Source: an uncultured Clostridia bacterium
GTDB taxonomy: Bacteria > Bacillota > Clostridia > Oscillospirales > Ruminococcaceae
Direction of reading: 5' to 3'
Assembly: GCA_947629335.1 (NCBI GenBank)
Contig: CANRDI010000020.1
Span: forward strand, 1-32,413
Length of the DNA stretch: 32,413 bases
Positions within the stretch are counted from its first letter, which is position 1. The number at the start of each line of letters is the position of its first letter. Made by a program: the position numbers and the translations under genes. A model generated the notes under the pieces. That model searched no databases. It saw only the letters and a list, made by a program, of their open reading frames with translations, and was not told the origin of the DNA. This document shows, in pieces, positions 2,937 to 21,730 of the stretch.

Positions 2937-3310
2937 TAGTAAAACCGTAATTTTTTTTTAGTAATTTTATCATTGACATTTTAGATGACAGTTTTGTACA
3001 TCCTTAATTAAGGCGGCTGTCTCTGTTTACGGCATAAAAGGAGCAGGAAAGCGGACTATAAGGAAATTTTTGAAATATTTAAGGCAATGCCGAACAAAAA
3101 TATTGTGCAAAGACTTTAGTCGGTATTTATGGGGTATTGCCTTGATATTACATTTTTTCAGCATTAACGTTTTTAAATAATTCGGCAATTTTGCAAAGCG
3201 GCAAATGTCTCCGACAGTCAAGAACGAAATTTTATCAGACTGTATAAAAAACCAAATCTCAGGCTTTATCGACAGCCTGAATTTATTTGTAAATTTTTTT
3301 CTAAAATATG
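2937..3310. other. Non-coding gap upstream of the dut leader
   Basis: No gene with a credible start, ribosome site or family signature is visible on either strand. A hairpin TCAGGCT..AGCCTGA at 3259-3280 is followed by a T-rich run ending about 3300 and could be a plus-strand terminator of an unseen or decayed transcript. AT-rich tracts fill the rest. Confidence 0.5.
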
Positions 3311-7440: not shown

Positions 7441-8262
7441 TAAGAAAGACGGACAGCGCCTTTCCCTTACAGCAAGTTGCATAAAAATTTTGAAAAGGGG
7501 TTTGTGGGAAAACTTTTTCAAAAGTTTTCCCACAAAAAATTTTAAGCGAGTTATTTTGTTGCTTTGTTCAAACGCACGAACCATTTCATTTTCCGTTTAC
7601 TTTATACTGTGGGAAAACCAAACCGCGGAGGGAACCTGCCGGTTCCCCCGCTCCCCCTCCAGCGGATTGCCGTTTTAAATGCCTGCATTTGAAACGGCAA
7701 TGCGGGGAAAACTCTTTTTTTCCCCACACCCAAGATAAAAAGCCATAGGCTTTTTATCTGATGCGCTTCGCTGACGCGAAGTTTCGCGGCTTCGCCGCGA
7801 CCAGAGAGGAAACTTTTTTGAAAAAAAAGTTTCCTCTCTGGTCTCTCCTTCAAAAAACTTATGTACCGCCGCTTGCGCGGCGGTCGGAGAGTGGAAACGC
7901 CTTTCCCTTATAGCAAGTTACATAAAAGTTTTGAAAAGGGGCTTGGGGGAAAACTTTTTCAAAAGTTTTCCCCCAAAAAAATTCGCAAAAACTTTCGTAC
8001 CGCCGCTTGCGCGGCGGTCGGAAAGTGGAAACGCCTTTCCCTTACAGCCAATTACATAAAAGTTTTGAAAAGGGGCTTGGGGGAAAACTTTTTCAAAAGT
8101 TTTCCCCCAAAAAATTCGCAAAAACTTTCGTACCACCGCTTGCGCGGCGGTCGGGAAGTGGAAACGCCTTTCCCTTACAGCCAATTACATAAAAGTTTTG
8201 AAAAGGGGCTTGGGGGAAAACTTTTTCAAAAGTTTTCCCCAAAAAAATTTTCCAAAAATTCA
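7441..8262. repeat. Modular palindromic repeat block 2
   Basis: The left part (about 7460-7860) is an inverted copy of the ~414-bp unit seen at 20837-21250: shared landmarks include a fold-back AAAAC..GTTTT hairpin, the ATTTCATTTTCCGTTT stretch, the CGCGGAGGGAACC arm, a variable hairpin at 7667-7700, CGCGGCTTCGCCGCG, and an AGAGGAAAC..GTTTCCTCT hairpin. The right part is three tandem units of about 133 bp starting at 7863, 7997 and 8130. Each has a GCCGC..GCGGC hairpin and a GGGGGAAAAC..GTTTTCCCCC hairpin. All open frames across the block, on both strands, come from the repeats and have no family signature. The block fills the convergent gap between the response regulator and the clostripain-like gene. 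Confidence 0.88.
7667..7700. other. Variable hairpin of the repeat element (version 1)
   Basis: Stem TTGCCGTTTTAAATGC with GCATTTGAAACGGCAA, one G-U pair, 2-nt loop. Flanks match, in inverted orientation, those of the different hairpins at 21082-21116 and 21495-21529. Confidence 0.85.
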
Positions 8263-8265
8263 ACA

Positions 8266-10596
8266 TCAGCGCACGATTATCGCCTCTGACCAGTATTCCT
8301 GATTATAAATGTCCGTAAAAAGATACATTATCCTCGCTTCATTCGAGCCGACACTGACGTTTGTTATCTCCATTGTTTCCGTAACTGTCATCTGCTCGCC
8401 GAGATAATAGCTGTCCTGATACTGCATATCGCGCGAGTAAAAGTCGCAGATAAAATCAAGCTTGTCGCCTGTGTTGAGCTGTATCAGGTTCTTCGCAACA
8501 GTCTCAGTCTCGCCGTCATAGTCGTAGGTTGCTCCCGCTATATAGGCGCTCGTTCCCTCAAAAACAATTATCAGCTTCACGCGCGTTCCGTTCAGCATTG
8601 CCGGCACATATCCCACAATATAGCTTCCGTCGGCGTTTTCAATCGTGTCGGTATGATAATACGCCACGGGCTGACCGTTTATAGCTACCCAGTTCTTTTC
8701 AGTATCCGCAACAAGATTTCCGTTGTCATCAAACGTGAAAACATTGTCTATCCCCATGTCAACATAGCCCGTGCCGTCAAAATAGAACATATTCATATCA
8801 AGCGCGTGTACAAGCTCCCATTGTTCCTCGGAAAGCTCCATTATATACTTCCCGTCCGTCTTTTTCCAAACGAGTTTGCTTGCGTCAAGATAATTCTCTG
8901 CAAGATACTGTGAAACAGAATTTATGTCCTGACCCTGCATAAAGTCGGTGTTTGTGCTGTCAAGTTCGTCTATTGACCTGTTCGAGTTTAAAAAAGCGCT
9001 CAAAAGTCCGCTTATTATGTCGGCACTTCCCGAAGAACCGCTCGGACTGCTCTGTCCGAAAAGCGACGAGATAGGCGAAGAACTGCCGCCTGCGGCTATC
9101 TGTCCGCTTGTTTCCAATTGCGCAAATTTCTTTATGCAATTTGCATACTCGTCGTCCATTCCGATAAGCTCGTATGTGTCGCAGGCTTCGTCAACATAAG
9201 ACGTCCTCTTATACGGAAAATATATGGAAACTCCATAAGCCTTTGTCATATTCGACGAAGTACGGTTATATTTTACTGCATTTCTGACAACGCTGCTGAG
9301 GGCGTTTCCCTCGGAAGAGTTCATATTCATTGCAAGATCGGCGAGATCTACCTGATCTATTTTGGAGCTTACGGCAAACTCGCGGGTATTATAGCGCGCG
9401 TCGGAAACTTCTTTGTAATTGTTCTGAGAAATTTTATTGCTTACAGAGCGCGAAAAGTCCACGAGCTTTTCGGGAACAGTATGCGCAAATTCCGCAAGGT
9501 CAATGACCGAAAGCGTTGTTTTCTGTCCTCGGCATTCGCTCGCGCATTTTGTCACAAAATCATCGACGATATCCTTTCCGATTTCGAGAGTTGACATTGA
9601 CGTGTTCTTTGCAAAGCTGTTCAGCCAGTTTGTATAGTACCAGCCTATTCCCGGCTCGGTTTCCTCGCTTGCAATAAGATAATCGGCATATTTATCGAGC
9701 ATAATGGCGTTCTCTGCCGTTGCCATTAGGCAGGCGTCAAAGCCTATAAAATCAAATGTTGTTCCGCCCGCTTTAAGCGCCTTGTCGATTTCCGCAAGGC
9801 TCATAGAGCCGGAATGTTTTTCGTCATAGCCGTAGCCGCTTACAGAACCGCCGCCGTGATCCCACAAAATAAGCTCGTTTCGGTTTGCAGGATAATTCGC
9901 GCTGCAATATTTAATAAAGTCCGAAAGCGTGTCGGGATTTGTCATAGACTTTGCGCTTTCGCTTTTCAAAAGCGTTCTGCGACCGTTTTTAATTGAAAAA
10001 ATCTGGTTTTGCGAATTGCTGATGTCAGAGCTTTGCCATTTTTTACAGCCGCCCGTGTAGACGATTACATTAAAATTGTCGCCGAAATTCCTGCTCGCGG
10101 CGAGCATTTCGTCCATATCCGCCGAAGCCATTCCGTATTTGCTTTCAAGGTCCGTCCCGCACATATAGACCATTAACGTTACAACATCTCTGTTCGACCC
10201 TAAAATCTGCGTGCGCTTTGCTCTCGAACCTGCGGCGACATTATTGTTCAGATTTCCCGCAGCTCCCGAATTTATCCCGACGTCAGAGTTTCCGCCGCTG
10301 CTTAATAAATTGCCGCAAACGCCGTTGTTGAAAAGCAAAATCAAGCACACAATCAAGCCTATAATGCCGCTGCCGCCTATTGCAGCTCTTTTTACGCCGC
10401 TTCCTCCCGAATAAGACCTTCTGCCGCCCGAACTGCCGAAATTGCCGGAACTTCCCGAACTGCCTGAACTGCCCGATGAATTGTAGTCGTGAGAGCCGAC
10501 TCTGCCCGTGCCGAGACCGCTGCCTCTGCGGTGAACGCCGCTGCTCTGTCCGCTGACATTTTTATCGCGGGAATGGGGTCTGTTTTTGTTGTCCAT
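8266..10596 (-). CDS. Membrane-anchored clostripain-family (C11) cysteine peptidase
   Basis: 776 residues. The first 70 residues are a Ser/Gly-rich, Arg-containing cytoplasmic tail. Residues about 71-90 form one transmembrane segment, followed by a Ser/Gly/Asn linker and the peptidase domain. The caspase-like dyad is visible: His247 in ILWDHGGGS and Cys289 in FIGFDACLMATAE, both typical of the C11 family, which usually cleaves after Arg or Lys. A low-complexity Ser/Gly linker (around 500-525) separates a C-terminal domain with no recognised family. The topology suggests an extracellular protease tethered at the membrane. The start has GGAGGAAAAATT upstream and a consensus promoter. It appears monocistronic, with a repeat block right after its stop codon. 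Confidence 0.9.
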   Translation of the reverse strand: MDNKNRPHSRDKNVSGQSSGVHRRGSGLGTGRVGSHDYNSSGSSGSSGSSGNFGSSGGRRSYSGGSGVKRAAIGGSGIIGLIVCLILLFNNGVCGNLLSSGGNSDVGINSGAAGNLNNNVAAGSRAKRTQILGSNRDVVTLMVYMCGTDLESKYGMASADMDEMLAASRNFGDNFNVIVYTGGCKKWQSSDISNSQNQIFSIKNGRRTLLKSESAKSMTNPDTLSDFIKYCSANYPANRNELILWDHGGGSVSGYGYDEKHSGSMSLAEIDKALKAGGTTFDFIGFDACLMATAENAIMLDKYADYLIASEETEPGIGWYYTNWLNSFAKNTSMSTLEIGKDIVDDFVTKCASECRGQKTTLSVIDLAEFAHTVPEKLVDFSRSVSNKISQNNYKEVSDARYNTREFAVSSKIDQVDLADLAMNMNSSEGNALSSVVRNAVKYNRTSSNMTKAYGVSIYFPYKRTSYVDEACDTYELIGMDDEYANCIKKFAQLETSGQIAAGGSSSPISSLFGQSSPSGSSGSADIISGLLSAFLNSNRSIDELDSTNTDFMQGQDINSVSQYLAENYLDASKLVWKKTDGKYIMELSEEQWELVHALDMNMFYFDGTGYVDMGIDNVFTFDDNGNLVADTEKNWVAINGQPVAYYHTDTIENADGSYIVGYVPAMLNGTRVKLIIVFEGTSAYIAGATYDYDGETETVAKNLIQLNTGDKLDFICDFYSRDMQYQDSYYLGEQMTVTETMEITNVSVGSNEARIMYLFTDIYNQEYWSEAIIVR

Positions 10597-10625
10597 AATT
10601 TTTCCTCCATATTTTATATGGCTTT

Positions 10626-10654
10626 ATTATACACTTTTTTTCAATATTTGTCAA
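10626..10654 (-). promoter_or_regulatory. Promoter of the clostripain-like gene
   Basis: On the minus strand TTGACA (10649-10654), 17-bp spacer, TATAAT (10626-10631), about 30 bp upstream of the start codon. Confidence 0.85.
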
Positions 10655-10701
10655 GTAGACGGCTGATATTCGGCATTTATATAAAAACGGCTTTCACTTT
10701 G

Positions 10702-10741
10702 CAAAAAAATTGCGAGGAAACTCCGCAGCGGTTTCCTCGCA
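10702..10741 (-). terminator. Rho-independent terminator after the CapA pair
   Basis: Perfect 11-bp stem TGCGAGGAAAC (10711-10721) with GTTTCCTCGCA (10731-10741), 9-nt loop. Read on the minus strand it is followed by ATTTTTTTGC. Confidence 0.85.
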
Positions 10742-10804
10742 CCATATTGTAAAATTGTAAAAACGTTATGCCTTAATATTTCGACCCGAAAATTTTAAAT
10801 TCTG

Positions 10805-12001
10805 TCAGGGCAGATAATCGACTATTTTAAGCTGCTTATCAAACTGCTGTTTTGCCATACTGTATGTAAAGCTCGGACAGCCGTGCTTTGCGGCAAGCTC
10901 TTCGGTATAGTCCTCCCAGAGATAGATCTTCAAATTTGAATTAGCCGCGTCGTTGTCATAATGCGAAACTATCGGAACAGCCTCAGGTTCGGAAAGTATG
11001 ATCTTCCCTGTTTCAAGATCTTTTGTCACTGTCAGCTCGCCTATCATTCCCAACATTCCGAGCGGAACATCCATATGCGATACAAAATTTCCCAGGCAGT
11101 AGAACACGAACGCTTCCGTGCCGTCGGGCTTTGTTACATACTCCATAGGCTGGACGGTGTGAGCCTGTGTGCCGACTATTATGTCCGCGCCCCAGTCTAC
11201 AAGTTTTTGCGTCATCTGCTTCTGGTCGTCCGTAACGACGCCCGTTGTTTCAACGCCGTAATGCGGACTTACCACAACAACATCCGCCATTTCGTCCGCT
11301 TTTTGCACGAGCATTTTTATTCTTTCCGTTTCAGAAAGATATGTTATCTTCATATCCGAGCCGCTTGGGATAGTGATGCCGTTTGTATGTTCGGGAAATC
11401 CCAAAAAAGCAAATGTTATGCCGTTTATTTCTGCAACAGGGATATGATCCATTTCTTCCATAGTAGAAGCGCCGTATACAATTGTATTCGGGTGATTTTC
11501 TTTCCAGTATCTGAGCGTAGCTTTCAGCCCCGCAATGCCCTTATCGAGGACATGGTTGTTGCTGATAGATATAGCGTCAAAACCTATCTCGACCATTTGG
11601 TCGCCGCATTTTCCCGGAGTAACAAAGCTCGGATATCCCGAAGCGGCAAACTCGTCTGTGACAAGCGTTTCCTGATTAAGTATCGCAAGGTCAGCCGCCG
11701 CTACAATGTCCTTTACATCTTCATATACTGGCATAAAATCATATCCGTTTCCGCCCGTTCTCTGAAAAGCCTGATCGTAAATGGTGGTATGGATAAGGTT
11801 ATCTCCCGCGCACAAAAGTCTTACGGTAGGATTTTCGGGCGCAGCAGGCTCGGAACTTTCCTCGGCGGAGCTGTTCGATCCGTCCTGTGAGCCGTCTTGT
11901 GAAGACTGACTGCCGGAAGATGAATTTAAATCAGTCTGAGTGCTTGTACAGCCTGCAATAAGGCAAACCGAGATTATCAAAGGGATAATTTTCTTTTTCA
12001 T
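10805..12001 (-). CDS. CapA-family lipoprotein (copy 1)
   Basis: 398 residues. The N-terminus is a lipoprotein signal with lipobox LIAGC, followed by a Ser/Gln-rich linker, so the protein should sit on the outer face of the membrane. The rest is a CapA/PGA_cap domain with a metallophosphatase-like fold: landmarks are LLCAGDNLIH, AILNQE, SISNNHVLDKG, VVSPHYG, GTQAHTVQP and FYCLGNF. CapA relatives take part in poly-gamma-glutamate capsule anchoring or export, but no capB/capC genes are nearby, so the role is open. It lies 38 bp downstream of a close paralogue with no promoter in the gap, so the two are probably co-transcribed. A terminator follows. Confidence 0.88.
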   Translation of the reverse strand: MKKKIIPLIISVCLIAGCTSTQTDLNSSSGSQSSQDGSQDGSNSSAEESSEPAAPENPTVRLLCAGDNLIHTTIYDQAFQRTGGNGYDFMPVYEDVKDIVAAADLAILNQETLVTDEFAASGYPSFVTPGKCGDQMVEIGFDAISISNNHVLDKGIAGLKATLRYWKENHPNTIVYGASTMEEMDHIPVAEINGITFAFLGFPEHTNGITIPSGSDMKITYLSETERIKMLVQKADEMADVVVVSPHYGVETTGVVTDDQKQMTQKLVDWGADIIVGTQAHTVQPMEYVTKPDGTEAFVFYCLGNFVSHMDVPLGMLGMIGELTVTKDLETGKIILSEPEAVPIVSHYDNDAANSNLKIYLWEDYTEELAAKHGCPSFTYSMAKQQFDKQLKIVDYLP

Positions 12002-12039
12002 TGCTGTAACGTCCTTTCTGAGAAATTTGTCATAATGAT

Positions 12040-13245
12040 TTACGGAAGATAGTCAACTATCTTTAAAACCTTTTCAAACTGTTTTTCTGCAAAACTGTAA
12101 GTAAAATACGGGCAGGCGTTCTTTTCTGCAAGCTCTTTTGTATAGTTCTCAAAACGATATATCTTCACATTTGCATAGCCGCTTTCATAGTGTGTGACTA
12201 TCGGCACGGCTTCAGGATCGGAGAGAATTATCTTTCCCGTTTCGAGGTCTTTTGTAACCGTCAGCTTGCCGAGCATTCCTATCATTCCGAGAGGCTGATC
12301 CATTACAGATACCAGATTTCCAAGACAGTAGAACACAAACGCCTCCGTACCGTCGGGTTTTGTAACATATTCCATAGGCTGGGCGGTATGGGGCTGGGTG
12401 CCGATTATGATGTCCGCGCCCCAGTTTACGAGATCTTGTGTTATCTGTTTTTGATCGTCTGTAACTTCATCCGTTACTTCAAGTCCGTAATGCGGACTTA
12501 CCACAACAACGTCCGCCAGCTTGTCCGCTTTTTCCACGAGCATTTTTATCCGCTCTGTTTCTTTCAGATATGTTATTTTCATATCCGAGCCGCTCGGAAG
12601 CGAAAGTCCGTTCGTATGCTCCTGAAAGCCGAGAAAGGCGAAAGTAATGCCGTTTATTTCCGCAATGGGTATCTCGTCCATTTCCTCTTTTGAAGAAGCT
12701 CCGTAAACAATAATATCGGGGTGTTTTTCACTCCAGTATTTCAACGTAGCTTTAAGACCTGCTTCGCCGCGGTCAAGAACGTGGTTATTGCTGATTGAAA
12801 CAGCGTCAAATCCCATTTCTATCATCTGGTCGCCGCAGTCTTCGGGAGTGCAGAAGCGGGGATAATTCGACGGAACAAACTCATCGGTGATTATAGTTTC
12901 CTGATTTAACACAGCAAGATCCGCTTCGGCTATAAGGTCTTTAACTTCCTCATACACGGGTCTGAAATCATAGCCGCTTCCGCCTGTTCTTGCGCTTGCT
13001 TGTTTATAGATAGGGCTGTGGATAAGGTTGTCTCCTGCGCAGATAAGAGTTGCGGTCGGATTTGGACGTTCTTCGTGTTCGGAAGAATTTTCAGTATTTG
13101 AAGAACTTTCAGAACTGCTGTCAAAACTATTGCTGCCGACAAACTCCGAGGACGTTGAGCTGCTGAGAGTTGATGGATCTATCTGTGTGTTTGTACATCC
13201 TGCCAATAATAATACCGAGATGATTATAGGAATGATCTTTCTCAT
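12040..13245 (-). CDS. CapA-family lipoprotein (copy 2)
   Basis: 401 residues from the ATG at 13245. A longer GTG-started frame reaches 13293, but that codon falls at or before the predicted transcription start and would spoil the lipoprotein signal MRKIIPIIISVLLLAGC. It has the same layout as the next gene: lipobox, Ser-rich linker, then the CapA domain (LICAGDNLIH, AVLNQE, SISNNHVLDRG, VVSPHYG, GTQPHTAQP, FYCLGN). The two proteins align along their whole length and differ mostly in the linker, which indicates a tandem duplication. It has its own promoter. Confidence 0.88.
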   Translation of the reverse strand: MRKIIPIIISVLLLAGCTNTQIDPSTLSSSTSSEFVGSNSFDSSSESSSNTENSSEHEERPNPTATLICAGDNLIHSPIYKQASARTGGSGYDFRPVYEEVKDLIAEADLAVLNQETIITDEFVPSNYPRFCTPEDCGDQMIEMGFDAVSISNNHVLDRGEAGLKATLKYWSEKHPDIIVYGASSKEEMDEIPIAEINGITFAFLGFQEHTNGLSLPSGSDMKITYLKETERIKMLVEKADKLADVVVVSPHYGLEVTDEVTDDQKQITQDLVNWGADIIIGTQPHTAQPMEYVTKPDGTEAFVFYCLGNLVSVMDQPLGMIGMLGKLTVTKDLETGKIILSDPEAVPIVTHYESGYANVKIYRFENYTKELAEKNACPYFTYSFAEKQFEKVLKIVDYLP

Positions 13246-13298
13246 AGTAATTTCAACCCTTTTCAAATTAAAATTTTCTGATAATATTGGCACTTATA

Positions 13299-13327
13299 AT
13301 TATAATCTGCGAACGGCGTTTCGTCAA
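13299..13327 (-). promoter_or_regulatory. Promoter of the CapA pair
   Basis: On the minus strand TTGACG (13322-13327), 17-bp spacer, TATAAT (13299-13304). The predicted start near 13292 supports the ATG at 13245 as the start of the first CapA gene. Confidence 0.75.
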
Positions 13328-13434
13328 TAATTTATTTCTTACGATTTACTTACGATTTATTTACAATTTTCTTGCGACAGCGCCGTGCAAAGACCGAATT
13401 ATGTATTTGTATCCATTCGCGCTGCTGTTTTTTT

Positions 13435-14553
13435 TTATTTTACAACAAACGCCGCGGGCAGTTTCCAAGAGGACTGATTATAATAAAACGTTACGCTGTT
13501 CTGAAGATATTTGTCGCCGTAGTACATACAAGTCGAGCTTCCGCCGTCAAGATTTGCGGCGTTTACCGCGCCATAGCGCGTCATTATTTCGATAAGATCC
13601 GCCGCAGACGCGCCGACATGACCGCTCGCTCCGCGTCCGTCTGTCACCAAAAGCAGCATTGCGCCGTCTGCGCGCTGTCCTATAGCCGTTCGGGGATTAA
13701 GACCGCTTCCCGCGCCGTTTACCTCGCGCGGAACGCCGTTAAGCACTAACTGTACGAAGTGGTTGCTTTCTGCGCTTGTATTATCGGGGAAGCATACCGC
13801 GTCGCGTATTCCTTTTTCTTCTATCATAGCTTTACATTCTGCGGCGCTCATCTTGCTGATATCGACGATTTGCAGAATGTTGTTATTTGTAAGTCCGACG
13901 AGTACAAGTCCCGGCCACTCCTGCGGGTGGTTTCTGATAATAACGCCGTTTGAAACCAAAACGCCGTATGCACAGCCTCCGCAGTTGTTTGTTGAATTAT
14001 ATATGCCGCCGTTTATTCCGCCGACCGCTCCCGCTTTTTCCACAAGTTCTTTAAGCGGAACACCTACCTGCCAGTTGTCATATCCCAAAGCCGTAGAAGC
14101 TATGCTCACTCTTGAAGGATCTTTAACGATCATAAGCGTTGCTTTATATGTAAGTCCCGCTATCTCGATGATCTCTATGCTCTGCATATCTTCGCCTTCG
14201 ACATTTTCATTCGTCTGAGGGAGAGTTATCATTCCCTCGTTTATGTTTGTATCGCCGATATCTTCGAGCGAAGTTTTGTTTATTATCTCCTCTATTTCGC
14301 TTTTGGGCAATGCAAGCGAAGCTAAAAATTTCATCTGTCCCGATTCGAGAACGGTCGTTACAAAAGTGCTTTTAGACGCCTTATAAGAGCATATCACCTT
14401 TAGCATTATAAACAGCGTAACGGCTATTATCAAAATAAATACGCCTATAAAAGCGAATATCTTTCCTATGAGCTTCGGCACGGATAATTTTGCCGCTTCG
14501 GGAAGTTTTTCGTTTACCGATGATGTTCTTCTGTACTTTTCTTTAAGCAGCAT
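13435..14553 (-). CDS. Membrane-anchored phosphodiester glycosidase (NAGPA) domain protein
   Basis: 372 residues. A short cytoplasmic tail and one transmembrane segment (about 28-52) precede an extracellular NAGPA domain. Landmarks are GINGGIYNS, NPRTAIGQRADGAMLLLVTDGR and NAANLDGGSSTCMYY near the C-terminus. Family members cleave phosphodiester-linked sugars, and bacterial ones are often annotated as exopolysaccharide-related; the substrate here is unknown. An AGGAGG site lies 8 bp upstream of the start. The start overlaps the end of the upstream 509-residue gene by 11 bp, so the two are translationally coupled and probably act together at the cell surface. No clear terminator separates it from the CapA pair. 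Confidence 0.87.
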   Translation of the reverse strand: MLLKEKYRRTSSVNEKLPEAAKLSVPKLIGKIFAFIGVFILIIAVTLFIMLKVICSYKASKSTFVTTVLESGQMKFLASLALPKSEIEEIINKTSLEDIGDTNINEGMITLPQTNENVEGEDMQSIEIIEIAGLTYKATLMIVKDPSRVSIASTALGYDNWQVGVPLKELVEKAGAVGGINGGIYNSTNNCGGCAYGVLVSNGVIIRNHPQEWPGLVLVGLTNNNILQIVDISKMSAAECKAMIEEKGIRDAVCFPDNTSAESNHFVQLVLNGVPREVNGAGSGLNPRTAIGQRADGAMLLLVTDGRGASGHVGASAADLIEIMTRYGAVNAANLDGGSSTCMYYGDKYLQNSVTFYYNQSSWKLPAAFVVK

Positions 14554-16072
14554 TTGCTTCGCCTCCTAAATTCTCATGCATTACCGCAATTTTCCAACTT
14601 CCGTCGCTGACCTTTGTAAAATAAATTATGTTATTGAACGAGTCGCTTCTTTTGCCCATATAAATGCCGTTTCGATATGTTTCCATATTCTTGTTGAAAC
14701 TTACGGTACATGAAAAACAGCTTTCGCTGTACTGTATAAAATGACTTACTTTCACATCGGAAAATCCCAGAAGAATGTGATCGGCGATAAATGTTATATC
14801 TATTCCGTAAGCCCACTGTTTGGCATATTTATAATATTCCGAATCGGGGATAAGATATTTGGAGATAACGCTTAATCCGTTGTCCCAGCCGCCGATGTCG
14901 TCCGTCATAAAATTGCTCCAAAGTTTTGCTACAGCCAAAACGTCGATCTCTTTCGTGATTTCCTCAGGAACTGCGTCGAGCATTTCGGGAGAAAGGGTCG
15001 AATTTCCGTAAGGGACATTGAAATTTTTGGAAGAAGCGCCGTCGGAAACTGTCGCCGAAACCTTGTCGCTAAAGAGAGAAAACGTATAGCCGTTCTGTTT
15101 TGAAAGAGTCACTCCCGCGTATTTCAAAAGCTGTTCAGCGTCGGGAGAATCCGACGTTACAGGTTCGGGGAGAGCCGCGCCGTCTATTGAAAGCGTACAG
15201 TTTTCGGGAACGAAAACGCTGTAATCAAAAAGCGGTATCTCCTCCCCGTCTATATATTTATATCCCGCGCCCATACAGTCTTTTATGAGAATGTCGGGTT
15301 CTTCCATTTCACGCACGCTGTAAATAACGTCATTTCCGCTCGGCGTTCCCGAAACTTTCTCATCGTTTACCGTAACGCTCACGCTTTTCGGAAGCGTCAG
15401 CCGATAATCGTACATAATAGGCTTTACGGTGTTGTCCTCGACTTTATACGGAACTTCGTTTCCATCTTTATCGGTAAATTTTATCGCCGGTTCATTCATA
15501 AGTCCCGAAAGGGAATATGACGGAGTTCCCGAAAGCGCCTCTCTTTCGTCCTCAGACAGCTCAACGCCGTTTATCGTCGCCCTGATCCCCTCAGGGCAGC
15601 ATACGCGGATATCATATACCGTGTCTGAGACCACAGGTATAAACGCGCTTAAACTCCAATCCGCAAAAGTGAAAAACATCAGCTTCGTTCTGGGATTTTT
15701 TCCGCTCAAAACAACTTTACCGACGTTTTCCTCGCCGCTTTTGATGATATAAGTTTTTTGAAGTTCGCCGCTTTCCGACGCAACAATTTTATATGTAAGA
15801 TCTTTTCCGACGACCTTTGACGAATATTCCTGCTTGAATTTATCGGGGTCGTTGTTTTCATAGCGGTTTGTGCAGAGCTTTTCAAAGTCTATCTCCGATA
15901 ACAGCGAGCCGCTTTTCAGTCCGTTTATCTTATCTTCGACAATATTTTCGGGCTGAACTCGGTCATATTCGCTTACGACGATATTCACATAAATGATGAA
16001 AGCGCCGCAGAATATCGCAAGAACAGCCGCGAAAATAATCAAAGCAACAATAAATCTGCTTTTAAGTTTCAT
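14543..16072 (-). CDS. Membrane-anchored extracellular protein with repeated beta units and a C-terminal NTF2-like region
   Basis: 509 residues; no named family recognised. One N-terminal transmembrane segment (about 7-31) anchors an extracellular part. Three similar segments recur, each with a pattern like Y-x-V-x-x-P-x-x-x-x-x-x-I/V-N/D-G: IRVCCPEGIRATINGVEL, YRLTLPKSVSVTVNDEKV and YSVFVPENCTLSIDGAAL. Such units resemble those of TcaA-like surface proteins (impression only). The last ~120 residues (from about ITKEIDVLAVAKLWSNFM to SWKIAVMHENL) have the feel of an NTF2/SnoaL-like domain. It is the first gene of a pair with the NAGPA protein, which it overlaps by 11 bp. Its job may be cell-wall binding or support of that enzyme (inference). 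Confidence 0.75.
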   Translation of the reverse strand: MKLKSRFIVALIIFAAVLAIFCGAFIIYVNIVVSEYDRVQPENIVEDKINGLKSGSLLSEIDFEKLCTNRYENNDPDKFKQEYSSKVVGKDLTYKIVASESGELQKTYIIKSGEENVGKVVLSGKNPRTKLMFFTFADWSLSAFIPVVSDTVYDIRVCCPEGIRATINGVELSEDEREALSGTPSYSLSGLMNEPAIKFTDKDGNEVPYKVEDNTVKPIMYDYRLTLPKSVSVTVNDEKVSGTPSGNDVIYSVREMEEPDILIKDCMGAGYKYIDGEEIPLFDYSVFVPENCTLSIDGAALPEPVTSDSPDAEQLLKYAGVTLSKQNGYTFSLFSDKVSATVSDGASSKNFNVPYGNSTLSPEMLDAVPEEITKEIDVLAVAKLWSNFMTDDIGGWDNGLSVISKYLIPDSEYYKYAKQWAYGIDITFIADHILLGFSDVKVSHFIQYSESCFSCTVSFNKNMETYRNGIYMGKRSDSFNNIIYFTKVSDGSWKIAVMHENLGGEANAA

Positions 16073-16294
16073 ATTATTTCCTCCGAATTATATCTGCGAA
16101 TATTTTCTGACGTTGGGTCAAATGGTTTTTAAAATCACATTCTTTATTATAACATATTACTTTCTTTTTTTCAATACTTTTTTTCGTATAATTATACAAA
16201 AATCTACTTTATTTTCCGCAATATCCTACAAAAATATTTTTTTGGCAGACGATATTCTCGTATAGGAAAAATTCCGAAAAAAGTTTGATAATTC

Positions 16295-16323
16295 TTGACA
16301 AAACAGAAAAGATATGCTATAAT
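16295..16323 (+). promoter_or_regulatory. Perfect consensus promoter of the SGNH hydrolase
   Basis: TTGACA (16295-16300), 17-bp spacer, TATAAT (16318-16323): both hexamers are exact consensus. Confidence 0.88.
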
Positions 16324-16330
16324 CATATTA

Positions 16331-16349
16331 ACCTACATGAAAGGTAGGT
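16331..16349 (+). promoter_or_regulatory. Inverted repeat at the transcription start of the SGNH hydrolase
   Basis: ACCTAC (16331-16336) and GTAGGT (16344-16349) are perfect inverted arms around a 7-nt centre, beginning 8 bp after the -10. The site could be an operator placed to block a strong promoter, or a 5' mRNA hairpin. Confidence 0.5.
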
Positions 16350-16392
16350 AAATAATCAAAAAGTATAAAGTTTTATTTATCGAGGAATTGTT

Positions 16393-17019
16393 ATGAAACG
16401 GATAATTGCATTTGGAAATTCAAACACTTGGGGGTATGACGCCAAAACGCGCGGGAGATATTCTTCTGAAGTGCGGTGGACGGGTATTGTACAGAAAAAA
16501 CTTTTCGGAGCAGAGATAATAGAAGAAGGATTTTGCGGGAGAACAACTGTTTTTGACCGAGGCAGAAAAGGCATCTGCGGTCTGGAGAGCTTATGCGGAC
16601 TTGAAAATAACCGTATTCGGGCGGACGGGGCTATAATAATGCTTGGGACAAACGACTGCAAAACGGTATACAATGCCGAAGCGACGGACATAGGCAGAGG
16701 AATGGAACAATGCCTTAACATACTCGAAAATATTGTCGGAGCGAAAAATATCCTGCTTGTTTCGCCGATACTGCTCGGAGATGATGTTTATACGAAAGAC
16801 CCCGACTTTGGCGAAAAGTCGGTAAAGGTATGCCGACAGATCAGGGAAGTCTACAGGGAAATTTCCGAAAAGCACGGGACAGAGTTTCTTGACGCGGCTC
16901 AATTTGCAGAGCCGTGCAAAGAGGACAGCGAACACCTGGACGAAAAAGGTCATTATGCGCTGGCTTTAGGGATACTGGGATCAAACTTTATCAAAAGCCG
17001 TTTTCCGAATATGGGATAG
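16393..17019 (+). CDS. SGNH/GDSL-type hydrolase
   Basis: 208 residues, no signal peptide, so cytoplasmic. The SGNH blocks are visible: block I GNSNTWG with nucleophile Ser10, a Gly in GFCGRTT, block III GTND with Asn87, and block V DSEH with Asp178/His181 before the usual L-D-x-x-G-H. Family members are esterases or lipases, often acting on acetylated sugars or acyl groups; the substrate is not evident. The start has GAGGAA upstream. It has its own very strong promoter with an inverted repeat at the start site, so it may be tightly repressed. Confidence 0.9.
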   Translation: MKRIIAFGNSNTWGYDAKTRGRYSSEVRWTGIVQKKLFGAEIIEEGFCGRTTVFDRGRKGICGLESLCGLENNRIRADGAIIMLGTNDCKTVYNAEATDIGRGMEQCLNILENIVGAKNILLVSPILLGDDVYTKDPDFGEKSVKVCRQIREVYREISEKHGTEFLDAAQFAEPCKEDSEHLDEKGHYALALGILGSNFIKSRFPNMG

Positions 17020-17364
17020 CTCCCCCCTGCCGCTTCAGAGCGCAAATGTTGTCGGAATGCCTGTAAGCTCCGATATATCCTCAAAACTTTCCGAGTGTCT
17101 TTTTATGTTTCACTAATGTTTCATTTGGTTTTCTATTGACAAATAATGCTTTTTATGTTAAAATAAATACGCAATATTTTCCGTGACAACTGACGAATAT
17201 GTTTCGGAAGCGTTTTTTTGCTTTGCCGCTTCACTCTCCGACACTACAGCCGTCAGCGGGATATATTTCAGGTTTTTAAAAAATATTATAAATATTTCAA
17301 AAACATCAGATAATAATTTTCACAAAACGGACTTTTTAAGTCCTGCCGAAAGGAAACATCAAAA
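17020..17364 (+). promoter_or_regulatory. Intergenic region with the promoter of the MORN lipoprotein gene
   Basis: TTGACA (17136-17141), 17-bp spacer and TAAAAT (17159-17164) give a good promoter and a leader of about 195 nt. No gene is seen on either strand, only a short coding-like remnant on the minus strand near 17038-17100. Confidence 0.65.
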
Positions 17365-19878
17365 ATGAAAAAGATAATTTTATCAGCAATTGCCCTTGTG
17401 ACCGCCGCGGCAGTCATAAGCGGGTGTTCAGGCACACAGAACGAAAGCGGCTCTGACGAGCTTAAAGAAATGACAATAAACTCTGTCACGGGTATATCGA
17501 CCGAAGCGCCGACTTTGGCTTCGGATCTTATCGACGGCACTAAGACCGCACTTTCCGACGAAGAGACAACGGAACTTGACAGTCTGCTGAAAAAAGCGTC
17601 ATCTGCTGTCGCTACAAAAATTGAAGAACGCGAATGGACCAAATACTCCTGTTCTGCCGCAAAAAGCAGCCTCACAGGCGCGGAAGCTACGTTTTACGAC
17701 AGGCTCCACGAGGTGTGCGGAGGCTATCTGAGCCAATCTATGTACCAATCCGCAGATTTTTCGGAAAGAAAGGTTTTAAGAGGCGCAAAATATTCGGACC
17801 TGGGGCTTAGCATTGACGAAGCAGCAAATGTTGCGTTCTGGTTCAGACTTAATAATCCGCAGTATTTCTTTCTCGACAACTCTGTGTTCTATTCTACCAC
17901 ATACGTTTATTTTTGTCTCGGAGATTTTATGAATGACATTGAAGATCCCGCTAAAACTGCAAACGAGCTGTTTGCAAAGCTCGACGAATGGATTGGAGAA
18001 TGCGGCGGCGAAGAAACGGCGGATCTTGATAAAATGCTTGCTGCAAACAGCATTATTTGTACAAACACCGCGCGCTCGTCCGCAGAAGAGCTTGGAGATG
18101 AATACAAGTCGATCTACTCCGTTCTTATGAACGGGGACGCCGTATGCACGGGATATGCGCTTACTTTCTGTTCAATGGCAAACGCAATGGGTATCGAAAC
18201 CTTTACGGCTCAGAGCGGTAACTATATCTGGAACGTTTTTGAGGCTGACGATAAAAAATATTATTATGCCGACATATGCCTTAATGACAAAGAAAACAGC
18301 TTCGGCGAAAGCTGTCTCGGCATAGGTACGGAATACACCCTTGCCCTTGACGGCAGAGACAATACTCACGTTTATTCGGATATTTACGCCGCGTGGCTGC
18401 CGACAGCTTCACAAGAAAGCCTTGAGATATTCTCACAGTCGGTTTCAGCGCCCGCTCCCCGCGTAAGCGGCAGCGGAGGCTCTGCCATTAAGCTCGAATG
18501 GAACGCGGCAGAAAATGCGCAAGGATATGAATATCTTGTCTATAACGAAAAAAATATAGTTTCGGCGGGAATTGTTTCCGAGCCGCTCGTTTATGTTTCT
18601 ATATCTTCGGGAACAAACTCGGCAGATGTAAAAATACGCACCATAATAACTGAAAACGGAAAGACCGTAAATTCGGATTGGGCGGAGCTTACCGCGCTTT
18701 ACGACAACTCTTCCGGCAGACCTGCCGCTCCCTCAGACGTAAAAGCCGAAATGCGCACGGGCGAGGGCATAGCTGTCACATGGAAAAACAACGACGGAGC
18801 TGACGACCACATTTTCTTCAGTATCAACGGTACTCTTACAGATGTGCTTGGGTACAGCTATTCCGAAGGAAAAAGCGGCATTTTGATGAAGGGCTATGAG
18901 CCGACAGAAGATTGTTATTTCAGGATACTTTCCGTAAAAAGATCCGGAAATGTTGAAATTTACTCCGACCCCGTAACATTCAAATACAACGTTTCGGAAG
19001 GTCTGCAAAAAATAAACGAGATCGAAACGGGGAGAAATATTGTCAAAAATTATTCCGACGGCGTATATGTCGGCGATCTTACCGACGGAAAGAGAAACGG
19101 GACAGGTACAATGACCTTCTCAAACGGTGACGTTTACAGCGGCGAATGGTCAAACGACATCTACAGCGGCACAGGAAAACTTTCACTGATGAACGGCACA
19201 GTTTATGAAGGCGAGTTTTCCGAAGGCGAAATGAGCGGAAGCGGAAAAATGACGACAACATATACAAACGGCGATATAAGCGTTATAGAAGGCACATTTG
19301 AAAAGGGTCAGGCTTCAGGTCAGATAAGAATGAAGTATACCTTTGCCGACGGCGCGTCGTTTGTCTATGACGGCGAATATAAAAGCGGAAATATGAACGG
19401 CACAGGAGTAAAAACAACTTATACGGGCGGAAATGTTATGGAAGAAACAGGAACGTTCGTAAACGGAAATCTCAGCGGCACAGGCACAAAAACCGTCAAG
19501 TACTCAAGCGGAACGGTATATCTGTACGAAGGCGATTTTGTTGACGGCAAATTCACCTGTACAGGTACGAGAACGATAAAATACAAAAGCGGCGATAAGA
19601 GCGTAATTGAGGGCAATTTTACCGACAGCGACATAAGCGGTCAGGTAAAAATGACATATACCTTTGCGAGAGGCTCTAAATTCATCTATGAGGGAGAATA
19701 TTCAAATAACGCTCTGAACGGTCAGGGAATAAAGACGACCTACCGCACGGATAATTCATCTACTGTTGAAGAAGGAACTTTCAGAAACGAAAAGTTATAT
19801 AACGGAGTTTATACCCAATACAGCAGCGACGGCTCGATAGTTGTACAGAGAGAATATGTAAACGGTCAGCCAAGATAA
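17365..19878 (+). CDS. Lipoprotein with transglutaminase-like, FN3-like and MORN-repeat regions
   Basis: 837 residues. The lipoprotein signal ends at lipobox VISGC, placing it outside the membrane. Residues about 235-320 resemble a transglutaminase/protease core: Cys261 in DAVCTGYALTFC and Asp303 in YYADICLND. The His of the usual HAWN is replaced by Tyr287 (NYIWN), so the domain may be inactive or use altered chemistry. Residues about 357-447 and 448-542 look like two FN3 domains. From about 563 to the end there are roughly ten MORN repeats (YVGDLTDGKRNGTGTMTF type). A block of them is duplicated with a period near 107 residues (GQIRMKYTFADG and GQVKMTYTFARG). MORN repeats usually bind membranes or partner proteins. 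AAAGGA precedes the start. It appears monocistronic. Confidence 0.85.
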   Translation: MKKIILSAIALVTAAAVISGCSGTQNESGSDELKEMTINSVTGISTEAPTLASDLIDGTKTALSDEETTELDSLLKKASSAVATKIEEREWTKYSCSAAKSSLTGAEATFYDRLHEVCGGYLSQSMYQSADFSERKVLRGAKYSDLGLSIDEAANVAFWFRLNNPQYFFLDNSVFYSTTYVYFCLGDFMNDIEDPAKTANELFAKLDEWIGECGGEETADLDKMLAANSIICTNTARSSAEELGDEYKSIYSVLMNGDAVCTGYALTFCSMANAMGIETFTAQSGNYIWNVFEADDKKYYYADICLNDKENSFGESCLGIGTEYTLALDGRDNTHVYSDIYAAWLPTASQESLEIFSQSVSAPAPRVSGSGGSAIKLEWNAAENAQGYEYLVYNEKNIVSAGIVSEPLVYVSISSGTNSADVKIRTIITENGKTVNSDWAELTALYDNSSGRPAAPSDVKAEMRTGEGIAVTWKNNDGADDHIFFSINGTLTDVLGYSYSEGKSGILMKGYEPTEDCYFRILSVKRSGNVEIYSDPVTFKYNVSEGLQKINEIETGRNIVKNYSDGVYVGDLTDGKRNGTGTMTFSNGDVYSGEWSNDIYSGTGKLSLMNGTVYEGEFSEGEMSGSGKMTTTYTNGDISVIEGTFEKGQASGQIRMKYTFADGASFVYDGEYKSGNMNGTGVKTTYTGGNVMEETGTFVNGNLSGTGTKTVKYSSGTVYLYEGDFVDGKFTCTGTRTIKYKSGDKSVIEGNFTDSDISGQVKMTYTFARGSKFIYEGEYSNNALNGQGIKTTYRTDNSSTVEEGTFRNEKLYNGVYTQYSSDGSIVVQREYVNGQPR

Positions 19879-19879
19879 A

Positions 19880-19904
19880 CGGAAAAGCCGAACGAACTTT
19901 TCCG
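19880..19904 (+). terminator. Weak terminator-like hairpin after the MORN lipoprotein gene
   Basis: Stem CGGAAAAG (19880-19887) with CTTTTCCG (19897-19904), 9-nt loop. No T-run follows directly, so it may only stabilise or attenuate the transcript. Confidence 0.4.
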
Positions 19905-19954
19905 CCGGTTCGATAATATAATTTTTGAAGCTGAAAGAATTGAGAGGTCAGACT

Positions 19955-20428
19955 ATGAAAAGAATACTTTTCGTCTGTCACGGAAATATATGCCGTTCGC
20001 CAATGGCAGAATATATCTTTAACGATATGGTGAAAAAGCGTGGGATAACGGGAATTATCTCTGAATCTGCCGCGACTTCGACGGAAGAACTCGGAAACGG
20101 CGTTCACCGAGGAACATCCGCCATTCTGCGAAGGCTCGGAATAGACTGTTCGGCAAAACGCGCAAGGCAGATGAACGCGGGTGATCTTGAAAAATTTGAC
20201 CTGATAATCGGTATGGACAGCGCAAATATTCGCAACATAAAGCGAATTGCGGGCGAAAAATACAACGAAAAAATATTCAGGCTTTTAGATTTTTCGGACA
20301 ATACCCGCGACATTTCAGACCCGTGGTATACGGGTGATTTTGAAAGCACTTACCGAGATATTTCGGAGGGTTGCGAGGGGCTTTTAAAACGGATTTCAGA
20401 TAAAGAAAATCAATTTTTGAACGAATAA
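19955..20428 (+). CDS. Low-molecular-weight protein tyrosine phosphatase
   Basis: 157 residues from the ATG at 19955, which has GAGAGG upstream; a longer frame from 19925 lacks a usable start. The P-loop CHGNICRS supplies nucleophile Cys8 and Arg14 at the very N-terminus, as the family requires. The general acid is Asp122 in SDPWYTGD. These cytosolic enzymes remove phosphate from protein tyrosine, and in bacteria often regulate exopolysaccharide kinases; some act on arginine phosphate. No partner tyrosine kinase is visible here. The membrane HExxH gene follows 40 bp downstream, probably in the same transcript. Confidence 0.93.
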   Translation: MKRILFVCHGNICRSPMAEYIFNDMVKKRGITGIISESAATSTEELGNGVHRGTSAILRRLGIDCSAKRARQMNAGDLEKFDLIIGMDSANIRNIKRIAGEKYNEKIFRLLDFSDNTRDISDPWYTGDFESTYRDISEGCEGLLKRISDKENQFLNE

Positions 20429-20468
20429 AATTATTGCTCTCAAAAACGTTTGATACGAGGTGAACCGA

Positions 20469-20852
20469 ATGACGGTTTTGTACGTTATTTTACAATGCAC
20501 CTGGGGAATTTTGCAGACGTTTGCGGGAGCAGTGTTGTTTTTGCTTGTCGGCAGTAAAAAGCGTTTTTTTCATCACGGCGCGATAGTCAGCGAATGTAAA
20601 TTCAGCGTATCTCTCGGAATGTTTGTATTTATCCGCTCGAACAACAGCGAGCTTTTGCGTCATGAATATGCTCACACAATACAGTCGCTTATGCTCGGAC
20701 CGCTTTATTTGATAGTTGTGGGATTGCCGTCTATTATCTGGGCGGGGCTGTTCAACAAATACAGAAAGCGCAGGAATATCCCATACCGCTCGTTTTATAC
20801 GGAAAAATGGGCGGACAGTGTCGCTGAAAATTTATTGGGGGAAAACTTTTGA
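20469..20852 (+). CDS. Small membrane protein with an HExxH (metalloprotease-like) motif; C-terminus donated by a repeat
   Basis: 127 residues from the ATG at 20469 with GAGGTG 6 bp upstream; a GTG at 20460 overlaps the ribosome site. Hydrophobic segments lie about 5-27 and 75-93. The zinc-type motif is HEYAH in LLRHEYAHTIQSLMLGPLYL, followed by FYTEKWAD near the end; I recall this pattern from small uncharacterised bacterial membrane proteins. No second metal-ligand motif is certain, so activity is not proven. The last residues (about LLGENF) and the stop codon lie in the palindromic repeat that begins at 20837, so the native C-terminus seems to have been replaced by the repeat. Confidence 0.75.
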   Translation: MTVLYVILQCTWGILQTFAGAVLFLLVGSKKRFFHHGAIVSECKFSVSLGMFVFIRSNNSELLRHEYAHTIQSLMLGPLYLIVVGLPSIIWAGLFNKYRKRRNIPYRSFYTEKWADSVAENLLGENF

Positions 20853-21730
20853 AAAAGTTTTCCCCCAAACCCCTTTTCAAAACTTTTATGTAACGTGCTG
20901 TAGAGGAAAACGTATCCTCTCTCCGACCGCGCCGCAATGCGCGGCACATAAGTTTTTTGAAGGAGAGTCCGGAGAGGAAACTTTTTTTTCAAAAAAGTTT
21001 CCTCTCTGGTCGCGGCGAAGCCGCGAAACAAGCGTTAGCTTTGCGCTAAAGGGTGTGGGGAAAACAAGAGTTTTCCCCACATTGAGATTTTCAAAATGAA
21101 ATTTTGAAAATCTCAATCCGCTGGAGGGGGAGCGGGGGAACCGACAGGTTCCCTCCGCGGTTTGGTTTTCCAACAGTATAAAGAAAACGGAAAATGAAAT
21201 GGGTGCGTGCGTTTAAAGCAAAGCAACAAATTACGAGCTTAAAATTTTTTGGGGGAAAACTTTTTTAAAAGTTTTCCCCCAAACCCCTTTTCAAAACTTT
21301 TATGTAACGTGCTGTAGAGGAAAACATATCCTCTCTCCGACCGCGCCGCAAGGCGCGGCACATAAGTTTTTTGAAGAAGAGTCCAGAGAGGAAACTTTTT
21401 TTCAAAAAAGTTTTCTCTCTGGTCGCGGCGAAGCCGCGAAACAAGCGTTAGCTTTGCGCTAAAGGGTGTGGGGAAAACAAGAGTTTTCCCCACATTGAGA
21501 TTTTCAAAATGAAATTTTGAAAATCTCAATCCGCTGGAGGGGGAGCGGGGGAACCGACAGGTTCCCTCCGCGGTTTGGTTTTCCAACAGTATAAAGAAAA
21601 CGGAAAATGAAATGGGTGCGTGCGTTTAAAGCAAAGCAACAAATTACGAGCTTAAAATTTTTTGGGGGAAAACTTTTGAAAAAGTTTTCCCCCAAGCTCC
21701 TTTTCAAAACTTTTATGTTACTTGCTGTTG
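20837..21730. repeat. Modular palindromic repeat block 3 (414/413-bp tandem units plus a partial third)
   Basis: GGGGGAAAAC starts at 20837, 21251 and 21664, giving two nearly identical units and a truncated third. Each full unit has, in order: a GGGGGAAAAC..GTTTTCCCCC hairpin, a GCGCCGC..GCGGC hairpin, an AGAGGAAAC..GTTTCCTCT hairpin, CGCGGCGAAGCCGCG, a GTGGGGAAAAC..GTTTTCCCCAC hairpin, a 35-nt hairpin with a 16-bp stem, a GGGAACC..GGTTCCC hairpin and an AT-rich tail. The units differ by small indels and substitutions. The block fills the convergent gap between the HExxH gene and the 190-residue membrane protein gene. Open frames inside are repeat by-products. Confidence 0.92.
21082..21116. 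other. Variable hairpin of the repeat element (version 2, first copy)
   Basis: Perfect 16-bp stem TTGAGATTTTCAAAAT with ATTTTGAAAATCTCAA around a 3-nt loop. It occupies the same place between conserved flanks as the unrelated stem at 7667-7700. An identical copy is at 21495-21529. Confidence 0.85.

What the first reader, a model, noticed from the sequence alone, without database searches (positions are those of the whole stretch)
7441..21730. Family of modular palindromic repeats in three blocks (1-438, 7441-8262, 20837-21730)
The three blocks are built from the same interchangeable parts: GGGGGAAAAC..GTTTTCCCCC-type fold-backs, GC hairpins, AGAGGAAAC..GTTTCCTCT fold-backs and linkers such as CTTTTCAAAACTTTTATGTAAC. 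They are arranged in tandem units of different lengths (208, about 133 and about 414 bp), and one 414-bp type appears in both orientations. No transposase is present. This resembles BIME/REP-like or MITE-like elements, perhaps mobilised in trans, and I know of no named family with this structure.
Basis: partly seen in the sequence, partly recalled or inferred. Interest (0 to 1): 0.7.

Follow-up and report, generated by a model that had tools for sequence, protein, structure and literature searches.

The report
Modular hairpin elements that colonise terminators
A gut bacterium's genome is strewn with non-coding, hairpin-built repeats; in related species such elements insert at the stem-loops where genes end and copy the stem-loop, which explains where the repeats sit and hints at a little-documented way for mobile DNA to choose its targets.

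Summary
The three blocks are real (units of 208, 133, 413 bp) and belong to a high-copy intergenic family: the 413-bp unit gives 257 matches in its own genome. The hallmark hairpin GGGGAAAACAAGAGTTTTCCCC is in 20 of 43 genomes of the genus (1-89 copies, control 0) and in none of 391 other genomes of the order. All three blocks are missing at the orthologous gene ends I read (0 of 10, 0 of 9, 0 of 3), where ordinary terminators are common. REP/RAYT mobilisation is not supported: Y1 transposase is absent in 11 of 14 genomes. In relatives, elements with CAG...CTG-type ends, some carrying the same hairpin, lie between direct repeats of 15-30 bp (13 of 46; 0 of 904 mismatched pairs), mostly a whole terminator-like stem-loop (stem of 7 bp or more in 13 of 15, expected about 5%); an orthologous empty site has one copy. 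Best reading: MITE-like elements that target stem-loops and duplicate or supplant terminators. In the window's genome no duplication was found (0 of 44 clusters), so there the mechanism is inferred from homology. No transposase was identified.

The parts
1..438 (.). Block 1: two 208-bp units plus a partial one, cut by the contig start; hairpins at 100-137, 159-198, 308-345, 367-406; abuts the 3' end of the hydrogenase gene 448-1869 (-)
7441..8262 (.). Block 2: fills the gap between convergent genes 7012-7410 (+) and 8266-10596 (-)
7457..7542 (+). Leader (TTGCATAAAAATTTTGAAAAGG) plus hairpin A, first of four copies of an 86-nt unit
7533..7972 (-). Full multi-hairpin unit in reverse orientation (81% to the block-3 unit); hairpin B at 7799-7843, hairpin D at 7663-7704
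7898..8250 (+). Three more leader + hairpin A copies (7898-7983, 8032-8117, 8165-8250) as a 133-bp tandem array
20821..21728 (.). Block 3: two 413-bp units bounded by three copies of hairpin A; between convergent genes 20460-20852 (+) and 21738-22310 (-); supplies the stop codon of the former
20835..20868 (.). Hairpin A copy 1 (further copies 21248-21283 and 21662-21695)
20969..21009 (.). Hairpin B (second copy 21383-21422)
21054..21081 (+). Hairpin C, the hallmark GGGGAAAACAAGAGTTTTCCCC with closing pairs (second copy 21467-21494)
21081..21117 (.). Hairpin D, the variable-stem slot (second copy 21494-21530)
21134..21155 (.). Hairpin E GGGGGAACC..GGTTCCCTC (second copy 21547-21568)
3236..3280 (.). 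45-bp possible remnant or minimal element with CAGACTGTATAAAAA and TTTATCGACAGCCTG ends like those of the related mobile elements; not part of the three blocks

Best explanation
The blocks are arrays of non-autonomous, MITE-like elements built from swappable hairpin modules. The family is moved in trans by a transposase I did not identify, and its target is not a sequence but a stem-loop, chiefly the intrinsic terminator at the 3' end of genes. SHOWN in relatives of the same genus: elements with ends close to 5'-CAGNYTGT(AT/CG)AAAA ... TTTTACANRCTG-3' sit between two copies of a terminator-like hairpin, the repeat edges touching the element ends or lying within 2 bp of them, and an orthologous empty site has one copy; eight such elements in one species (G012) carry the family's hallmark hairpin C. 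SHOWN in the window's genome: the family is high copy, lies right behind stop codons, is enriched between convergent genes, and the three blocks of the window stand where the relatives examined have no unit and often an ordinary terminator. INFERRED: strand transfer at the 5' feet of an extruded target hairpin, then gap repair, copies the whole stem-loop; in other cases the stem-loop is lost and supplanted; because the elements consist of hairpins they become targets themselves, which builds the tandem and nested arrays (A-unit-A-unit-A in block 3). The hairpins probably also serve as new 3' ends of the flanking transcripts.
For: Copy number and restriction. Position: 17 convergent, 18 tandem, 6 divergent of 41 scorable own clusters against 12, 45, 24 of 81 repeat-free gaps of 60 bp or more (p 0.0016 for convergent). 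Gain in the own lineage: no leader motif within 300 bp (135 in one) of the stop in 10 of 10 hydrogenase orthologues (block 1) and 9 of 9 clostripain orthologues (block 2), most with an ordinary terminator by eye; block 3 absent at the orthologous gene end in L145, L282, L283; recF-remB gap with a unit in the own genome and under 30 bp without one in the seven closest relatives L312-L318. Target: 8 of 39 hairpin-C loci have flanking direct repeats, 0 of 155 mismatched pairs; 13 of 46 elements with paired ends, 0 of 904 controls; hairpin edges within 2 bp of the repeat edges in 11 of 13 (search limited to 8 nt beyond the repeat); 13 of 15 duplicated stretches have stems of 7 bp or more, expected 4.7-4.9%; empty site L155 against filled L135 (this element lacks hairpin C).
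Against: No target duplication in the own genome: 0 of 44 clusters, and none of the 7 own elements among the 46. Cluster edges in the named relatives show no excess either (3 of 106 at score 16 or more, controls 5 of 422). 33 of 46 elements lack a duplication, and of the three species tested for hairpin-C elements (G012, G015, G048) only G012 shows it. Block ends in the window carry no intact CAG/CTG ends against a duplicated hairpin. A clear run of T follows the right copy in only about 7 of 13 cases by eye, so some targets may be other stem-loops. At the L195 site the near relative G050 (L342) has a similar hairpin unit, so that copy is not specific to the own genome, and three other gaps are occupied in two species. 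No transposase with these ends was found in 20 small contigs of G012 (10 of their proteins scanned) or between paired ends in the loci held (the two candidates encode an amidohydrolase and DUF5682/AAA proteins). Repeat length correlates only loosely with measured hairpin length (0.40, n 13). Gene calls come from a simple longest-ORF script.
Confidence: 0.62

Rival explanations
1. Selected bidirectional 3'-end modules: the repeats are the lineage's own terminators or transcript insulators, amplified and homogenised by recombination and kept by selection, with no dedicated mobility.
For: Median distance from stop codon to repeat is 21 nt in 51 gene ends, and only 6 of the 51 keep an ordinary terminator before the repeat, against 25 of 93 elsewhere (p 0.036). 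Strong palindromes on both strands. Slot D keeps a stem of 10 bp or more in 132 of 146 distinct segments, 0 of 146 mononucleotide shuffles, in 102 different sequences.
Against: Direct repeats at the element ends and an empty site show insertion. Copy number of hairpin C runs from 0 to 89 between species of one genus, more like bursts of mobility. Only 4 of the 45 gene ends without a terminator before the repeat find one within 120 nt.
Confidence: 0.14
2. Ordinary MITEs of an IS1202/IS481-like DDE element that makes long target duplications of set lengths; terminators are hit only because 3' flanks are the tolerated places.
For: IS1202-group elements make duplications of 5-6, 15-17 or 24-29 bp (PMC10045372, passages; PMC10132070, abstract and passages). 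The ends seen here contain TGT..ACA-like motifs.
Against: The duplication coincides with the stem-loop edges (11 of 13 within 2 bp), and hairpins are 13 of 15 where about 5% are expected in 3' flanks. Lengths run through 20-32 bp rather than in separate classes. No such transposase was found, and none was searched for by family.
Confidence: 0.12
3. REP/BIME elements moved by a RAYT (HUH Y1) transposase.
For: Palindromes, high copy, extragenic, arrays with mixed orientation.
Against: Y1_Tnp absent in 11 of 14 genomes, including G005, G007 and G010 with 84, 89 and 85 copies of hairpin C. The three own copies look like an IS200-type element with unrelated ends.
Confidence: 0.03
4. A family of structured non-coding RNAs.
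For: Low folding energy and compensated closing pairs of hairpin C: C-G 84, T-A 49, G-C 22, others 15 of 170.
Against: Structure is equally good on both strands; G-T and A-C mismatches in D stems are equally rare (5 and 5 in 1727 pairs; 42 C-C mismatches are the commonest), as for DNA-level palindromes; no Rfam match besides one tRNA; no orientation bias in tandem gene pairs (29 sense, 24 antisense).
Confidence: 0.05
5. Palindromes grown and kept perfect by replication slippage and template switching (quasi-palindrome correction), without transposition.
For: Stems stay perfect while their sequence changes; arrays of different unit length.
Against: Dispersed near-identical copies at unrelated loci and target duplications need a copying-and-inserting step.
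Confidence: 0.04

Closest known systems
Pneumococcal BOX elements (with RUP, SPRITE)
   Same: Modular, 67-637 bp, intergenic, stem-loops, clustered and inserted into one another, over-represented between convergent genes (PMC3049150, passages)
   Different: Sequence similarity to BOX was not tested; stem-loop-sized target duplications are not mentioned in the passages I read
IS1272 and its proposed structure-dependent transposition (PMC5678879, passages)
   Same: Targets are inverted repeats of unrelated sequence and the target stem-loop is replaced; [quoted passage not shown]
   Different: IS1272 is an autonomous IS; the cases in those passages are replacements without duplication; here duplication is what is seen in relatives, and no transposase is linked
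REP/BIME with RAYT (PMC2817692, passages)
   Same: High copy, palindromic, extragenic, mosaic arrays
   Different: No REP-type transposase linked; conserved dispersed unit of about 60 bp or more; a REP tag was not searched for
IS1202-group insertion sequences (PMC10132070, PMC10045372, passages)
   Same: Unusually long target duplications (up to 28-29 bp)
   Different: The passages name dif-like targets for one subgroup and no target for the long-duplication subgroup; no such transposase was found or searched for here

Membership tests
MITE (non-autonomous inverted-repeat element) | Short, no transposase gene | tested here: met
   Elements of 103-490 bp; no protein family recurs widely beside own clusters (largest group 7 of 157 proteins, about 25-33% identity)
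MITE (non-autonomous inverted-repeat element) | Terminal inverted repeats | tested here: inconclusive
   46 elements of the genus found by searching for such paired ends, so met there by selection; the window blocks show only imperfect inverted ends
MITE (non-autonomous inverted-repeat element) | Target-site duplication | tested here: inconclusive
   Relatives: 13 of 46 elements, 0 of 904 controls. Own genome: 0 of 44 clusters. Named-relative cluster edges: no excess
MITE (non-autonomous inverted-repeat element) | Ends shared with an autonomous partner | tested here: inconclusive
   No partner in the loci held nor in 20 small contigs of one relative; whole genomes not read
REP/BIME | 20-40 bp palindromic unit (size from the abstract start of PMC3733652, listing) | tested here: inconclusive
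   Hairpin A alone is 34 bp, but the dispersed conserved unit is about 60 bp or more
REP/BIME | Associated RAYT (Y1) transposase | tested here: not met
   Y1_Tnp absent in 11 of 14 genomes
BOX element | boxA-boxB(n)-boxC modules | not tested
   No comparison with BOX sequences was run
IS1272-type structure-dependent transposition | Target is an inverted repeat regardless of sequence | tested here: met
   In relatives: 13 of 15 duplicated targets are hairpins (stem 7 bp or more) of unrelated sequence
IS1272-type structure-dependent transposition | Replacement of the target without duplication | tested here: inconclusive
   Would fit the own genome, but relatives show duplication
IS1272-type structure-dependent transposition | IS1272-like transposase | not tested
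   No search for that transposase family was run
Known Rfam RNA family | Match above the gathering score | tested here: not met
   Only a tRNA at 32338-32410 in the seven sources searched

The most novel reading that the evidence does not exclude
A class of mobile DNA that reads shape instead of sequence: it inserts at the feet of any terminator-like stem-loop, copies the whole stem-loop as its target duplication (the outcome the IS1272 authors drew as an alternative pathway), and, being built of stem-loops itself, keeps making new targets, so that hairpin-in-hairpin growth turns gene ends into modular palindromic arrays.
Probability: 0.45. Interest if true: 0.8.

Novelty: new variant of a known kind. 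Interest (0 to 1): 0.66.

Why it matters
Terminators are a large set of safe, structurally alike, sequence-unrelated sites in a compact genome. An element that recognises them by shape could spread without breaking genes, rewrite 3' ends genome-wide and cause rearrangements between arrays. The relatives hold dozens of insertions of different age, so hairpin-directed strand transfer, which I know only as a drawn model, can be tested, and the enzyme, if found, would be a shape-guided insertion tool.

Tried and rejected
REP/RAYT: rejected on absence of Y1_Tnp in 11 of the 13 hairpin-C carriers tested. Rfam families: none. Viral origin: the hallmark hairpin has no exact match in viral contigs. A recurrent neighbour gene as mobiliser: none. 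Autonomous partner: two candidate intervals were ordinary genes; 20 small contigs of G012 gave no paired ends. A polarity test of hairpin A against gene direction was contaminated because the motif also matches inside the hairpin; redone with a longer motif it shows no clear bias (21 and 17, 4 without, of 42). Built-in stop codons: TAG stops are enriched next to repeats in relatives (25 of 91 against 29 of 425), but not in the own genome (3 of 50 against 16 of 160), so I do not use it as general evidence. Species clustering of the core: 77 label changes on the tree against 103 or more in 50 shuffles, so copies cluster by species, but concerted evolution and separate bursts cannot be told apart. 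Shared gaps with species-specific versions (three pairs) come from a sample picked for holding the repeat. A first terminator scan that started after the stop codon missed overlapping terminators and was replaced. In one search several orthologue flanks were shown on the wrong side (loci are in contig orientation); one search repeats them correctly and is the one cited.

Literature: search listings only; the hairpin string is in no held paper; by titles and abstract starts, none of the listings showed a report of elements flanked by duplicated terminators. Passages read: PMC3049150, PMC2817692, PMC10132070 (with its abstract), PMC10045372, PMC10969869, PMC5678879; outline and abstract: PMC2267715.

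Full report
OBSERVATION. The blocks at 1-438, 7441-8262 and 20837-21730 are as described. Block 3 is A-unit-A-unit-A, with hairpin A at 20835-20868, 21248-21283 and 21662-21695 and, between the copies, hairpins B, a GC hairpin, C, D and E. Block 2 holds four copies of a leader + hairpin A unit and a reversed full unit. Block 1 alternates two fold-backs with a GC-hairpin linker. Both strands of the 413-nt unit fold much better than shuffles.

FAMILY. In the own genome the 413-bp unit has 257 matches and a 64-bp leader + hairpin query 150, with 40 of 178 candidates scored. Both counts include both-strand hits on the same palindrome. Sixty intervals in the fetched stretches sum to 29.1 kb, so at least about 1.2% of the 2.48-Mb assembly. 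Many contigs end in a repeat, so copy number is a lower bound. Hairpin C, GGGGAAAACAAGAGTTTTCCCC, is in 20 of 43 genomes of the genus: 42 copies in the own genome, 84, 89 and 85 in G005, G007 and G010, only 5 in G050, which has the closest hydrogenase (95%). The backwards-read control is 0 in all 43. In the order-wide sample it is in 3 of 394, all of this genus. The 413-bp unit has weak matches (best E 3.1e-5) in 3 of 16 genomes of other families, which I did not examine, so 'genus-restricted' is claimed for hairpin C only.

ARCHITECTURE. Hairpin C is nearly invariant in the own genome, although own loci were chosen by other modules: of 30 own rows, 28 are exact and 2 have one mismatch (up to 3 mismatches and six loop types were allowed). 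The next slot, D, has a stem of 10 bp or more in 132 of 146 distinct segments, shuffled 0 of 146, in 102 different sequences. The pair closing C varies in a compensated way (C-G 84, T-A 49, G-C 22, others 15, of 170). The relatives' rows were picked by the exact hairpin C, so only the flanking slots are free to vary there. G-T and A-C mismatches in D stems are balanced (5 and 5 of 1727 pairs; 42 C-C are the commonest), which gives no sign of selection as RNA on one strand. In several relatives the element is a mirror pair of such half-units; in G048 it is a single half of about 250 bp.

POSITION. Of 59 own clusters, 17 lie between convergent genes, 18 tandem, 6 divergent, 17 at contig or stretch edges and 1 far from a gene. 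Repeat-free gaps of 60 bp or more are 12, 45 and 24 (p 0.0016 for convergent, 0.079 for divergent). At least two of the six 'divergent' calls rest on ORFs that overlap the repeat. Fifty-one gene ends abut a repeat, 42 of them within 60 nt of the stop codon, and 6 keep an ordinary terminator before it, against 25 of 93 elsewhere. The ORF 20460-20852 reads its stop codon inside block 3.

GAIN. For the window itself: the 3' flank of the hydrogenase gene (block 1) has no leader motif within 300 bp in 10 of 10 orthologues, and that of the clostripain gene (block 2) none in 9 of 9 (135 bp available in one); ordinary terminators are visible in most of them. Block 3 is missing at the orthologous gene end in the three relatives read, L145, L282 and L283. 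Synteny on the other side of block 2 is broken in the relatives, so only one flank is compared there. Elsewhere: the recF-remB gap of the own genome holds a unit, while the seven closest relatives (L312-L318) have gaps under 30 bp; among the other printed relatives I saw no unit, one (L319) has a longer gap through a repeated recF end, one (L334) is not syntenic, and the rest of the output was cut. At the Na/Pi-transporter 3' end (L195) relatives L348 and L349 have heptamer repeats and an ordinary terminator, but the nearest relative G050 (L342) has a similar hairpin unit. Three other gaps are occupied in two species by species-specific versions.

TARGET. In G012, elements with hairpin C lie between two copies of a hairpin; a clear run of T follows the right copy in about 7 of the 13 curated cases by eye. 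Tested without using the hairpin as a criterion, 8 of 39 hairpin-C loci of G012, G015 and G048 have such direct repeats, all 8 in G012, and 0 of 155 mismatched pairs do (9 of 48 loci were dropped for two hairpins or short flanks). Among loci L070-L177, L181-L220, L222-L444 and the window, 46 elements with paired CAG..CTG-type ends were found; 13 have a direct repeat touching the ends or within 2 bp, 0 of 904 mismatched pairs. Adding two G012 sites, 13 of 15 duplicated stretches form stems of 7 bp or more, against 4.7% of random intergenic and 4.9% of 3'-flank stretches of the same lengths. In 11 of 13 curated cases hairpin and repeat edges agree within 2 bp. L155 shows the empty site of L135 with one hairpin; the L135 element carries no hairpin C. 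The weaker cases are L362 (15 bp, stem 5) and L408 (stem 5 with one mismatch allowed). Against: cluster edges show no excess of direct repeats in the own genome (0 of 44; controls 2 of 173) nor in the named relatives (4 of 106 at score 14 or more; controls 10 of 422). The targets lie mostly 3' of genes; three (L305, L088, L400) lie between convergent genes with 29-47 bp to each, a placement like that of the window's blocks 2 and 3.

MECHANISM. Shown: insertion, inverted ends, duplication of the stem-loop in relatives, non-coding content, no Y1 transposase in 11 of 14 genomes. Inferred: a DDE-type enzyme acting in trans that recognises an extruded stem-loop. Wan et al. (PMC5678879, passages) proposed that strand transfer at the 3' feet of a cruciform replaces the stem-loop, as seen for IS1272, and that transfer at the 5' feet would duplicate it. 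The relatives here look like the second outcome and the own genome could be the first, but in the own genome no duplication was found, so that step rests on homology of the core and on position. Growth of arrays by insertion at resident hairpins is my inference; it predicts units separated by copies of one hairpin, as in blocks 2 and 3.

COMPARISON. The nearest described kind is the pneumococcal BOX/RUP/SPRITE set: modular, nested, enriched between convergent genes (PMC3049150, passages). REP/BIME membership fails on the transposase. IS1202-group elements share long duplications (PMC10132070 and PMC10045372, passages). 'New variant of a known kind' reflects MITE-like anatomy with a stem-loop target.

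Noticed in passing
window 3236-3280: A 45-bp element with CAGACTGTATAAAAA and TTTATCGACAGCCTG ends, possibly a minimal or collapsed copy of the mobile element.
   Followed up: partly
L052, L050, L062, L187, L190: Heptamer arrays such as (TTAGAGG)n on one side and the inverted (CCTCTAA)n on the other flank several clusters; their sequence differs between species but stays inverted (by eye).
   Followed up: partly
named relative loci L070-L177: Genes next to the repeats use TAG stop codons more often (25 of 91) than other genes (29 of 425), 11 of the 25 followed by AGG, as if the array supplied the stop; not so in the own genome.
   Followed up: partly
L178, L179, L180 (G000 C10, C15, C16): Three near-identical copies of what looks like an IS200-type element; one lies next to a lone repeat hairpin, one inside what looks (from recall) like an IS3-type transposase gene.
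   Followed up: no
L206:5989-6673: A further tandem array with a 163-bp spacing in the own genome.
   Followed up: no
L140:1309-1449: A heptamer-bounded insert is also flanked by two copies of a 31-bp hairpin, so heptamer elements may use the same kind of target.
   Followed up: no
L305:265-435 (G049): A 121-bp element between two identical 25-bp hairpins in a genome without an exact hairpin C, so the hairpin-duplicating elements reach further than the hallmark.
   Followed up: partly
window 448-10596 against G002, G005, G007, G010: Hydrogenase and clostripain genes are on the same strand in the own genome but on opposite strands of one contig in these relatives: a rearrangement, perhaps with a breakpoint at block 2.
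   Followed up: no
L433 (G012 C78): Small contig with a rolling-circle replication initiator and a C-5 cytosine methylase, perhaps a small plasmid or integrated element.
   Followed up: no
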